This document shows positions 1 to 5,274 of a stretch of DNA of 15,421 nt, one piece after another. The notes beneath the pieces were generated by a model. It was not told the origin of the DNA. It made no database searches and saw only the letters and a list, made by a program, of their open reading frames with translations. The first letter of the stretch is position 1. Each line of letters opens with the position of its first letter. Made by a program: the position numbers and the translations under genes. This DNA is from Chloroflexota bacterium (GTDB taxonomy: Bacteria; Chloroflexota; Ktedonobacteria; Ktedonobacterales; Ktedonobacteraceae): the NCBI GenBank assembly GCA_902810755.1, contig CADDYT010000150.1:1-15421 (forward strand), given 5' to 3'.

Positions 1-1030
1 AGCGAACCACTTTTTTCCTGACCATTGCCAGCGCCTCATTGATCGAGCGGGGGACAGACTGCAAGGGAAGGCGTTTGAGGCGGTGAGCGAGGGCCATAGG
101 AGCGATGGCGTAGACGTGATCGGGCGTGACTTCTGACTCTCCTAGATAAGCGGCGTAGGCTTGCGCGGCGCGGCGCATGACGATATCGCCGCGATGCCCG
201 TCCACGTCCAGTTCGATATTTATCATGGCGATGAGTTCGGCGACCTTGCGCGGCACGCGCACCTGCGGCATGTTGCGGGCGGCCAGGATGATGCGCTCGC
301 GCAGCGCCTGCTCCGCCGCAGCGTAATCAGCCAGAAATGCCTGCGGATTGGCCTCATAGCGTTCGCGCCGCTCGACGATCTCGACGCGGTGGTGGATGTT
401 CTGGATGGAGGTAATATCGACGCAGAGGCCGAAGCGATCTGTCAACTGCGGGCGTAGTTCGCCCTCCTCCGGGTTCATGGTGCCGACGAGCAGGAAGCGC
501 GCCGGGTGGCTGAACGAAATGCCCTCGCGCTCGACGAAATTGACGCCCATTGCGGCTGCGTCCAGCAGCACATCGACCACATAATCGTCCAGTAGATTGA
601 CCTCATCGACGTAGAGGATGCCGCGATTGGCCTCTGCCAGCACGCCCGGCTCGAAGCGTCGCTGTCCCTCACGCAGCGCGTGTTCGATATCCAGCGTCCC
701 CACCACGCGATCTTCCGAGGCGTTGATGGGCAGATCGACCACACGCATGCGCCTGCGCACGACGGGCAACGGCTCGCCCCGCTCTTTGCGCTCGCGGCAG
801 GTTGCGCACATCTCCTCTGGCTTATCCGGCGGGCATGAAAAAGGACAATCGGCCACCGTGTCGATCTCCGGCAGCACGGCGGCCAGCGCCCGCACAGCCG
901 TCGATTTGGCCGTGCCTTTCTCGCCGCGAATCAGCACGCCGCCAATCGTCGGCGTAATGGCATTGAGGATCAGCGCCAGTTTCATCTCATCCTGGCCCAC
1001 AATCGCACTGAACGGATAGATCGATGTCAT
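1..1030 (-). CDS. BchI/ChlI-like AAA+ ATPase (magnesium-chelatase I subunit family), 3' end cut off
   Basis: The frame is open from an ATG at 1030 to the window edge (343 codons, close to full length for BchI, about 340-350 aa). It starts MTSIYPFSAIVGQDEMK. A Walker A motif GEKGTAKST lies at residues 36-44, a four-Cys cluster (C62, C66, C75, C78) in the insert after it, Walker B ILYVDEVNLL at about 138-147, and GTMNPEEGELRPQLTDR further on. This is the AAA+ fold of the metal-chelatase/MoxR group, which drives metal insertion or protein remodelling by ATP hydrolysis in the cytoplasm. Its closest in-window relative is the N-terminal half of the fusion gene at 2320-4311. It follows the alcohol dehydrogenase on the same strand, with a long palindrome between them and only a weak ribosome site. 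No chelatase large subunit (BchH/CobN) is present, so a porphyrin substrate cannot be assumed. Family is sure; role is not. Confidence 0.88.
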   Translation of the reverse strand, partial: MTSIYPFSAIVGQDEMKLALILNAITPTIGGVLIRGEKGTAKSTAVRALAAVLPEIDTVADCPFSCPPDKPEEMCATCRERKERGEPLPVVRRRMRVVDLPINASEDRVVGTLDIEHALREGQRRFEPGVLAEANRGILYVDEVNLLDDYVVDVLLDAAAMGVNFVEREGISFSHPARFLLVGTMNPEEGELRPQLTDRFGLCVDITSIQNIHHRVEIVERRERYEANPQAFLADYAAAEQALRERIILAARNMPQVRVPRKVAELIAMINIELDVDGHRGDIVMRRAAQAYAAYLGESEVTPDHVYAIAPMALAHRLKRLPLQSVPRSINEALAMVRKKVVR

Positions 1031-1055
1031 TGCTCGTTTACTTTCTCGGGTTAGC

Positions 1056-1130
1056 AACCGAAACCAGTTGCACAAAAGCGATTGTGTGCGCCCGGCGCAC
1101 ACAATCGCTTTTGTGCAACTGGTTTCGGTT
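1056..1130. repeat. Perfect 75-bp palindrome (36-bp arms)
   Basis: Arms 1056-1091 and 1095-1130 are exact reverse complements around the centre at 1093, leaving a 3-nt loop. On the minus strand it begins within the stop codon of the alcohol dehydrogenase and ends 25 nt before the start of the BchI-like gene. It lacks a T-run on either side, so it is not a standard intrinsic terminator. It could be an mRNA 3'-end stabiliser, an attenuator between the two genes, or a palindromic repeat element. The repeat itself is read directly from the sequence; the function is unknown. Confidence 0.95.
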
Positions 1131-4311: not shown

Positions 4312-4428
4312 TGCTTCCCATTCTCTCGCAAACGACGCGCTACAACGGGCGTACACCATCAACGAACGGCCGAGAACGAAGACAACGTGCATGCTATCAC
4401 ATGCCAGAGTTAGATGTCAAAAGTATTT

Positions 4429-5274
4429 CTACCGTGTCAGATAACCCGCATCCACAGGCAGGGCGACGCCGGTCAGGTGGCGGGCTTCGTCGGAGGCCAG
4501 CCAGAGGACGGCGGCGCTGATGGCTTCCGGCGGCAGCAGGTTGCGATCAGGAAAGAGATTGAGCATGTTCATGATTTCCAGAAAGTGTTCGTAGGTGGCC
4601 TGAGGGCCGGGGCCACCGGCGAAGAGGTCGTAGAGGGCCTGGTTGCGGCACATCGTCGTATCCACGCTGGTCGGGCAGACGGCATTGACGTTGATATTGT
4701 AGGGGGCCAGCTCGAAGGCCAGTGCCTTGACCAGCCCGATCACGCCGTGCTTGGCGGCGACATAATGGGCCAGGTTCGGCATGCCCTTCTGCGCGGCTGT
4801 AGAGGCAATGCAGATAATTTTGCCGCTGCGCCGGGGCAGCATCTGTGGAATGCTGACCTTGCAGGTGATCCAGACGCCCTTCAGATCAACATTGACCGTC
4901 TCGTCCCACTGCTGCTCGCTCAGCTCCCAGCTCGGCGCGAACGAATACAGGCCCGCGTTCGCCACCACGATATCGATGGGGCCGAGTTCGCTTCGCGCCC
5001 GCTCCGCCAGTTCCTGCATGCCCGCAAGGTTGGTCACGTCCGTCTGTGAAGCGATGACCGGGCGACCGAGCGTCTCGATTTCGTGGGCCAGCGTGGCCAG
5101 TTCTTCCGGCGTCGCCAGGGGATAGGGAACGCTGCTGTACTGCTTGCAGGCGTCACAGACAACCAGCCGCGCCCCCTCACGCGCGAAGGCCAGCGCGTGC
5201 GAGCGTCCCATGCCGCGAGCCGCGCCCGTAATAAATACGACCTGATCCTGAAAACGCATGCCCTCTGCCGTCAT
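4429..5274 (-). CDS. Mycofactocin-coupled SDR-family oxidoreductase
   Basis: A 281-aa short-chain dehydrogenase/reductase, cytoplasmic and NAD-binding. The cofactor motif TGAARGMG (16-23) is followed by GRSHA. D41 selects NAD. NAG is at 106-108, with the catalytic S158, Y171 and K175 (YVAAK). The segment SSVPYPLATPEEL after beta-2 is an insertion typical of the mycofactocin-dependent SDR subfamily, whose NAD is buried and not exchanged; mycofactocin is the proposed electron acceptor. The first ATG (5274) lies 2 nt after the mftA stop, so the two are almost certainly co-transcribed and probably coupled. An internal ATG at 5259 (MRFQDQ) after GAGGGC would also fit the family start. The substrate is unknown; relatives act on alcohols, terpenes or steroid-like compounds. 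Confidence 0.93.
   Translation of the reverse strand: MTAEGMRFQDQVVFITGAARGMGRSHALAFAREGARLVVCDACKQYSSVPYPLATPEELATLAHEIETLGRPVIASQTDVTNLAGMQELAERARSELGPIDIVVANAGLYSFAPSWELSEQQWDETVNVDLKGVWITCKVSIPQMLPRRSGKIICIASTAAQKGMPNLAHYVAAKHGVIGLVKALAFELAPYNINVNAVCPTSVDTTMCRNQALYDLFAGGPGPQATYEHFLEIMNMLNLFPDRNLLPPEAISAAVLWLASDEARHLTGVALPVDAGYLTR

What the first reader, a model, noticed from the sequence alone, without database searches (positions are those of the whole stretch)
1..5274. Chelatase/MoxR-type AAA+ and VWA proteins interleaved with mycofactocin-dependent dehydrogenases
Order on the minus strand: mftA, mycofactocin SDR, ChlI-ChlD fusion, NDMA-type alcohol dehydrogenase, BchI-like ATPase. No tetrapyrrole gene and no large chelatase subunit is present. 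AAA+/VWA pairs of the MoxR type activate dehydrogenases such as methanol dehydrogenase. Here the pair could load a metal or cofactor into the zinc alcohol dehydrogenase or a mycofactocin partner protein. I do not know of such a link being described.
Basis: partly seen in the sequence, partly recalled or inferred. Interest (0 to 1): 0.78.

Follow-up and report, generated by a model that had tools for sequence, protein, structure and literature searches.

The report
Chelatase-like ATPase pair in mycofactocin operon
In what look like soil-type Ktedonobacteria, two ATPase proteins resembling parts of a chlorophyll/vitamin B12 metal-inserting machine, but without its metal-inserting core, sit among the genes for a peptide-derived redox cofactor and its dehydrogenases, giving a lead to what such "orphan" pairs may do.

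Summary
The gene order is real: mftA, mycofactocin SDR, ChlI-ChlD fusion (ChlID), NDMA-type alcohol dehydrogenase, ChlI, beside mftB, mftC and mftF, in a Ktedonobacteria-like genome. The ATPases are chelatase-type (BchI/ChlI), not MoxR-type; no large subunit is in the window. Of 47 genomes of the class, one has CobN, and it lacks mftC. The ChlI falls in a clade of ChlID-ChlI pairs from 11 Chloroflexota genomes without a detected large subunit; pairs of this kind are in print with unknown function. Over 151 Chloroflexota, ChlI/ChlID goes with the large subunit, not with mftC, so the pair is no general mycofactocin partner. Within this clade the link holds: G251 repeats mftA-SDR-ChlID, and 18 database ChlID clusters share an exact contig length with a mycofactocin-SDR cluster (0.64 expected; contigs not read). 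All 121 ChlIDs of this type examined carry an unusual MIDAS motif, DGSDSVM. G123, inside the clade, keeps both dehydrogenases without a detected pair, so it is probably dispensable. Best reading: an orphan AAA+/VWA remodelling motor recruited as an optional accessory of the mycofactocin operon; its target is unproven, and obligatory metal loading is disfavoured.

The parts
2..1102 (-). ChlI/BchI-like AAA+ ATPase; ORF to 1102, likely start near 1030 (343 aa); stop codon just outside the window
   Evidence: TIGR02030 463.5 bits, TIGR02442 493.9; PDB ChlI 6l8d E 4.8e-112; closest database relative 95% identical, 343 aa; tree placement in the large-subunit-less pair clade
1129..2274 (-). NDMA-type, zinc-containing alcohol dehydrogenase (likely start near 2235); zinc-ligand residues look intact by eye (positions recalled)
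   Evidence: TIGR03989 508.2 bits, cut-off 440; sequence
2320..4392 (-). ChlI-ChlD fusion (ChlID): AAA+ domain, linker, VWA domain with MIDAS variant DGSDSVM and TDGLAN; likely start near 4311
   Evidence: TIGR02442 643.2 bits, VWA_2 42.4 bits; signature; G251 relative 65% over 385 residues
4429..5274 (-). mycofactocin-coupled SDR oxidoreductase
   Evidence: TIGR03971 333.8 bits, cut-off 300
5277..5489 (-). mftA, mycofactocin precursor peptide ending DGICGVY
   Evidence: TIGR03969 31.6 bits, cut-off 25; sequence
5594..7249 (-). membrane protein, weakly PMT_2 glycosyltransferase-like
   Evidence: PF13231 18 bits, below cut-off 26.1; translation
7430..7726 (+). mftB, mycofactocin chaperone
   Evidence: TIGR03967 64.9 bits, cut-off 33
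7723..8889 (+). mftC, mycofactocin radical SAM maturase
   Evidence: TIGR03962 418.9 bits, cut-off 265
8849..10477 (-). mftF, mycofactocin glycosyltransferase
   Evidence: TIGR03965 375.4 bits, cut-off 280
10474..12120 (-). GxGYxYP putative glycoside hydrolase, overlapping mftF by 4 bp
   Evidence: PF14323 198.2 bits; next to mftF in 7 of 8 related loci
12970..14583 (+). acyl-CoA ligase (AMP-forming), conserved beside the cluster
   Evidence: PF00501 320.9 bits; present in 8 of 8 related loci

Best explanation
The two ATPases are an orphan chelatase-type AAA+/VWA machine: ChlI rings driven by ATP, coupled to a ChlID fusion whose VWA domain grips a partner protein through its MIDAS site, without the CobN/ChlH core that would make it a tetrapyrrole metal chelatase. 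In one clade of Ktedonobacteria the machine has been recruited into the mycofactocin operon, between and after the two cofactor-dependent dehydrogenases, and ChlID has kept its place beside the SDR while the proteins diverged. Most likely it remodels a mycofactocin-system protein, the SDR or the alcohol dehydrogenase first of all, as an optional aid (activation, repair or cofactor renewal), not as an obligatory metal-loading step. Shown: gene order, protein family, no large subunit in the window or detected in the draft genome G251, MIDAS and ATPase motifs present, the unusual MIDAS motif. Inferred: linkage beyond two loci (from equal contig lengths), ring assembly, remodelling activity and target.
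For: Family: TIGR02442, TIGR02030 and TIGR02031 matches; PDB ChlI and BchD relatives. Orphan state: PF02514 in 1 of 47 genomes of the class, G272, not G251; window ChlI in a 21-row clade (96/93 support) whose other 20 rows come from 11 genomes, 0 of 11 with PF02514 at E 1e-30. Linkage: G251 mftA-SDR-ChlID; 18 exact contig-length coincidences between 113 ChlID and 116 SDR clusters, mean 0.64 and maximum 4 in 200 shifted controls; 14 at 5 kb or more against 0.17. SDR tree: 20 ChlID-linked rows plus G123 form one side of a 100/100 branch. Specialised VWA face: DGSDSVM and TDG[LI]AN in 121 of 121 ChlIDs of this type; DGSDSVM in none of the 88 of 123 comparison proteins whose motif could be read. 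Analogy: NorQD is reported to drive metal insertion through its VWA partner (PMC13036017, passages).
Against: G123, nested among ChlID-linked rows, has SDR and ADH side by side and no ChlI/ChlID match at E 1e-50; six other mycofactocin-bearing genomes of the class, closely related (89-97%) and so about one lineage, also lack it. Relatives of the ChlI in other Chloroflexota sit beside malate dehydrogenase, M3 peptidase, LepA or MoxR-DUF58-TgpA, and 0 of 139 other ChlI/ChlID loci had a specific mycofactocin protein gene nearby. Synteny can persist without shared function. A promoter-like site lies just before ChlID (4420-4391; 5 such sites in the region against 1.9 expected), so it may be a separate unit. 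The ChlID's place in the tree is unresolved (AU p 0.163 for union with the pair clade). In G251 only a ChlID cut by the contig end is seen. ChlI-SDR contig-length coincidences (4) do not exceed the shifted maximum (5).
Confidence: 0.45

Rival explanations
1. Hitch-hiker: the pair is a general orphan ChlI/ChlID remodeller whose target has nothing to do with mycofactocin; it landed in the operon once in an ancestor of this clade and stayed by inertia or shared expression.
For: The same ChlI clade occurs beside unrelated genes in 11 Chloroflexota genomes, only 1 of 11 with mftC and there on another contig; no mftC association over 151 genomes (2 of 53 against 8 of 98, p 0.50); not detected in G123, which keeps the dehydrogenases.
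Against: Apparent ChlID-SDR linkage over ChlID identities from 94 down to 70%; the genes are interleaved with the dehydrogenases, not only at the edge; the MIDAS motif of this subtype is fixed and unlike the other groups.
Confidence: 0.3
2. Metal or cofactor loader: the pair inserts zinc into the NDMA-type alcohol dehydrogenase, or NAD into either dehydrogenase.
For: Position around the zinc dehydrogenase gene; NorQD precedent for metal insertion (PMC13036017, passages).
Against: The ADH (74-79% identical) occurs without a detected pair in 7 of 8 held relatives, about two lineages; related mycofactocin SDRs carried NAD after expression in E. coli in 9 of 10 structures (PMC5264612, passages); zinc alcohol dehydrogenases are not known to me to need an ATPase (recalled).
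Confidence: 0.1
3. True tetrapyrrole chelatase subunits whose CobN/ChlH partner lies elsewhere in the genome; the mycofactocin neighbourhood is accidental.
For: Sequence family; G272 of the same class has CobN and a ChlI/ChlID-type gene in a cobalamin operon. The window's own genome is not held.
Against: PF02514 not found in G251 and 46 of 47 genomes of the class (mostly drafts); G272's protein, a long branch, groups with CobN-linked sequences, not with the window; the window ChlI groups with genomes without a detected large subunit.
Confidence: 0.1
4. Maturation aid for mycofactocin itself: the pair acts on MftB/MftC or the modified peptide, for instance in place of the missing mftD/mftE steps.
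For: No mftD or mftE match over cut-off in the 8 mftC-bearing genomes of the class.
Against: All 8 lack them above cut-off, with or without the pair; distant relatives of both families exist in some; the closest linkage is with the SDR.
Confidence: 0.05

Closest known systems
ChlI/ChlD without large subunit in Chloroflexi and other phyla (PMC9227772, passages)
   Same: ChlI plus ChlD-type ATPase/VWA genes, no ChlH/CobN; function stated there to be unknown
   Different: Here embedded in a mycofactocin operon, interrupted by a dehydrogenase gene, with an unusual MIDAS motif; one search found no paper holding both mycofactocin and chelatase
Putative cobaltochelatase subunit TIGR02442 and Mg-chelatase ChlI/BchI TIGR02030
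   Same: AAA+ motifs, fused VWA, conserved four-cysteine stretch
   Different: Scores below the curated cut-offs (643.2 of 779.45; 463.5 of 466.95); no large subunit or pathway gene in the window
MoxR-type AAA+/VWA pairs (NorQD, CbbQO; RavA-ViaA and CoxDE recalled)
   Same: AAA+ ring plus VWA partner thought to remodel or activate a target protein
   Different: Another AAA+ family: no PF07726 match; AAA+ and VWA fused in one of the two proteins
Mycofactocin clusters (PMC3023750, passages)
   Same: mftA, B, C, F with SDR and zinc dehydrogenase families TIGR03971 and TIGR03989
   Different: 'ATPase' and 'chelatase' occur 0 times in that paper's main text; no mftD/mftE here

Membership tests
Mg/Co chelatase I and D subunits | Sequence over curated cut-off of TIGR02442 or TIGR02030 | tested here: not met
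   643.2 of 779.45 and 463.5 of 466.95; still clear homologues
Mg/Co chelatase I and D subunits | AAA+ core and VWA/MIDAS residues present | tested here: met
   Alignment of 9 and motif scan; Walker and MIDAS assignments read by eye
Mg/Co chelatase I and D subunits | Large subunit (PF02514) in the genome | tested here: inconclusive
   None in window; none found in G251 (draft); the window's own genome is not held
Mg/Co chelatase I and D subunits | ATP-driven metal insertion into a tetrapyrrole | not testable with these tools
   Needs biochemistry
MoxR AAA+ family | PF07726 (AAA_3) domain | tested here: not met
   No match for either ATPase at E 0.001; 204 bits in a MoxR of L146
Orphan ChlI/ChlID pair | ChlI in the clade of pairs from genomes without a detected large subunit | tested here: met
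   96/93, and 99/96 without long rows
Orphan ChlI/ChlID pair | ChlID in that same clade | tested here: inconclusive
   Long branch; union not rejected, AU p 0.163
Mycofactocin system | mftA, mftB, mftC over cut-off | tested here: met
   31.6/25, 64.9/33, 418.9/265 bits
Mycofactocin system | mftD and mftE present | tested here: not met
   No match among window ORFs scanned; none over cut-off in the 8 mftC-bearing genomes of the class; own genome not held
Mycofactocin system | Pair is a general partner (co-occurrence with mftC) | tested here: not met
   2 of 53 against 8 of 98 Chloroflexota genomes

The most novel reading that the evidence does not exclude
A nicotinoprotein activase: the orphan ChlI/ChlID machine pries open mycofactocin-dependent dehydrogenases, whose NAD does not exchange, to eject a damaged or dead-end cofactor and let a fresh one in, as CbbQO does for inhibited Rubisco. 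This would give a first function for ChlI/ChlD without a large subunit and explain why the pair is useful but dispensable.
Probability: 0.15. Interest if true: 0.85.

Novelty: new variant of a known kind. Interest (0 to 1): 0.6.

Why it matters
What ChlI and ChlD do without their large subunit is stated to be unexplored (PMC9227772, passages). A clade in which such a pair appears fixed beside two cofactor-dependent dehydrogenases, with its own MIDAS signature and one probable natural loss (G123), turns that question into a short list of testable targets. It would also add an energy-driven accessory to the mycofactocin system, whose SDRs hold NAD that does not exchange (PMC5264612, passages).

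Tried and rejected
MoxR family membership: rejected by Pfam and by PDB sequence matches. General co-occurrence of the pair with mftC across Chloroflexota: not found. Linkage outside this clade: of 148 loci searched, 139 hold ChlI/ChlID (80, 59; many shorter than 20 kb, a few repeats of one genome; L163-L171 were fetched for other genes); 0 of 139 had a specific MftC, MftF, SDR or ADH match. Hits over 100 bits were a 32% identical SDR in L191, a 27% radical SAM protein in L014, and two in loci fetched for mftD/mftE; mftA is too short for that threshold and was in effect not tested. No structure was predicted, since a single-chain model would not show the target.

Limits of counts. Thresholds: ChlI/ChlID E 1e-100 (151 genomes) and 1e-50 (47); PF02514 1e-30 and 1e-10; mftC 1e-60. 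The mftC count for the 151 genomes takes the handles that had already been given; I did not check that all 151 were drawn again. The 18 coincidences compare the 'longest contig' values printed: 113 of 120 ChlID and 116 of 119 SDR rows had a value (7 and 3 rows dropped, the window's own row left out); only the best 120 of each search are listed. Of the 18, 4 lie under 5 kb, where the shifted controls give most of their chance matches. ChlID-ChlI gave 7 (shifted mean 0.785, maximum 4), ChlI-SDR 4 (mean 1.31, maximum 5). Trees: one search used 63 Chloroflexota rows after I named 11 near-duplicate rows to be dropped; one search dropped 6 long rows for a second build; one of two intended outgroup rows was not found, so the root is unsure. 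In one search the MIDAS expression found nothing in 35 of 123 comparison proteins. Neighbour families of the 11 pairs were assigned by BLAST cluster with one or two Pfam-scanned members each.

Papers: PMC9227772, PMC3023750, PMC5264612 and PMC13036017 were seen as passages only; others as search listings. Absence from print rests, in an open-licence library only.

Full report
What is there. The window is a Ktedonobacteria-like stretch of Chloroflexota; the near ChlID, ChlI and SDR relatives that carry organism names are labelled Ktedonobacteraceae, Ktedonosporobacter or Chloroflexota. On the minus strand lie mftA, a mycofactocin SDR, a ChlI-ChlD fusion (ChlID), an NDMA-type alcohol dehydrogenase and a ChlI, and next to them mftB and mftC on the plus strand, mftF, a GxGYxYP protein and an acyl-CoA ligase. 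The ATPases belong to the BchI/ChlI family, not to MoxR: no PF07726 match, and the close solved relatives are ChlI, BchI and BchD.

Is the large subunit missing? None is in the window. Its genome is not held. Of 47 genomes of the class reached through G123, 8 have mftC, 2 have a ChlI/ChlID-type gene and 1 has PF02514. The one with PF02514, G272, has its ChlI/ChlID-type gene in a cobalamin operon (cobJ, cobM, cobI, cbiT) and no mftC. The other, G251, has mftA-SDR-ChlID in the window's order, ending at a contig edge inside ChlID, with mftB, mftC and mftF alongside, and no PF02514 match. Many are draft genomes, so absence is suggestive only.

Where does the pair come from? In 151 Chloroflexota genomes 53 have a strong ChlI/ChlID match and 27 have PF02514; 21 have both, 32 have ChlI/ChlID alone (p 7e-7 for association). 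Association with mftC is absent: 2 of 53 against 8 of 98, p 0.50. In a tree of AAA+ domains the window ChlI stands in a 21-row clade (96/93; 99/96 without long rows) whose other 20 rows are ChlI and ChlID from 11 genomes, none with PF02514. In 10 of the 11 the two genes are adjacent or within about 0.5 kb; in L152 they are 3 kb apart. The window ChlID and that of G251 form a long 100/99 branch; joining them to the clade is not rejected (p 0.163). Neighbours of the 11 pairs are malate/lactate dehydrogenase (4), M3 peptidase (5), LepA with a radical SAM protein (4), DUF58-TgpA (2, one with a MoxR), and others. So orphan pairs are a wider family, and ChlI/ChlD without large subunit is already described, with unknown function (PMC9227772, passages).

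Is the mycofactocin link more than one accident? Two readable loci have it. A third line is indirect: database clusters print the length of their longest contig. Of 113 ChlID and 116 SDR lengths, 18 coincide exactly; 200 shifted comparisons gave a mean of 0.64 and a maximum of 4. At 5 kb or more it is 14 against 0.17. Four of the contigs are 3.5-4.2 kb; if the match is real, SDR and ChlID must there be adjacent or have at most one small gene between them. ChlID identity to the window among the 18 runs from 94 to 70%. In an SDR tree these 18, the window and G251, plus G123, make one side of a 100/100 branch; the six other pairless genomes, 89-97% alike, lie on the other. G123, sister to a ChlID-linked row (99/95), has SDR and ADH directly adjacent and no ChlI/ChlID match in its 6.6 Mb. 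The simplest story is one gain and a later loss in G123; the root is unsure.

A specialised protein. All 121 ChlIDs of this type examined (the window's and the 120 listed) read DGSDSVM at the MIDAS and TDG[LI]AN further on. In the orphan pairs it is DASASMD and SDGRGN (9 of 9). In the other comparison groups, where the pattern was found, it is mostly DASxSM, with 5 DGSGSM and 2 DSSASM; CobN-adjacent ones read mostly [ST]DGRxN. The MIDAS residues themselves are kept; the surface around them has changed, as expected if the partner differs. That is inference.

How it may work. ChlI and BchI form ATP-driven rings and ChlD couples them to a partner through its VWA domain (established for Mg-chelatase; recalled). 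NorQD, a MoxR-type analogue, is reported to drive metal insertion by remodelling a VWA-protein linker (PMC13036017, passages). Mycofactocin SDRs hold NAD that does not exchange and, made in E. coli, carried NAD in 9 of 10 structures (PMC5264612, passages). An obligatory loading step is therefore unlikely; an optional step, such as renewal of a spoiled cofactor or activation under stress, fits both the place in the operon and the absence in G123. The target is not shown. The hitch-hiker reading remains open at about 0.3.

Against. No specific MftC, MftF, SDR or ADH gene lies near any of 139 other ChlI/ChlID loci; ChlI is seen beside ChlID and mft genes only in the window, and ChlI-SDR length coincidences are no more than chance; a promoter-like site precedes ChlID, weak as such sites are; the contig-length argument has not been checked by reading the contigs.

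Verdict. New variant of a known kind, interest 0.6.

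Noticed in passing
10474-12120 (-): A GxGYxYP putative glycoside hydrolase overlaps mftF by 4 bp and lies next to mftF in 7 of 8 other mycofactocin loci of the class (absent in L124). It may trim the glucan that MftF adds. The 8 papers listed first, which ranks papers with both terms first, each hold only one of 'GxGYxYP' and 'mycofactocin'.
   Followed up: partly
whole cluster; G123, G251, G115, G155, G066, G075, G057, G139: These mycofactocin-bearing genomes have no mftD or mftE match over the family cut-off; only weaker relatives. 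How the cofactor is finished there is unclear.
   Followed up: partly
L146 3176-10936; L147: In one Chloroflexota genome an orphan ChlID-ChlI pair runs straight into a MoxR-DUF58-TgpA operon, and L147 has DUF58-TgpA nearby: chelatase-type and MoxR-type ATPases side by side.
   Followed up: no
L144, L145, L148, L152: A malate/lactate dehydrogenase gene lies next to ChlID in 4 of 11 orphan-pair loci, again a dehydrogenase beside the pair.
   Followed up: no
14653-15123: Intergenic block of five imperfect 43-nt direct repeats and three inverted repeats of 20-43 nt, 85-100% complementary; nature unknown.
   Followed up: no
L161, L162, L183-L187, L190 and others: In many Chloroflexota the AAA+ and VWA halves lie in separate adjacent reading frames, which would fit the frameshifted chlD genes described in PMC9227772 (passages).
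   Followed up: no
L124 2311-3279 (+): In G251 a 322-aa ORF that looks by eye like a nuclease-type transposase lies between mftA and mftB, where the window has a weakly PMT_2-like membrane protein.
   Followed up: no
L123, L125, L126, L128, L130: In the 5 related loci listed a thiolase gene follows the NDMA-type dehydrogenase, with an acyl-CoA dehydrogenase next to it in four of them; an acyl-CoA ligase lies on the other side. Pfam was run on one thiolase and one acyl-CoA dehydrogenase. This points to fatty alcohol or related catabolism.
   Followed up: partly
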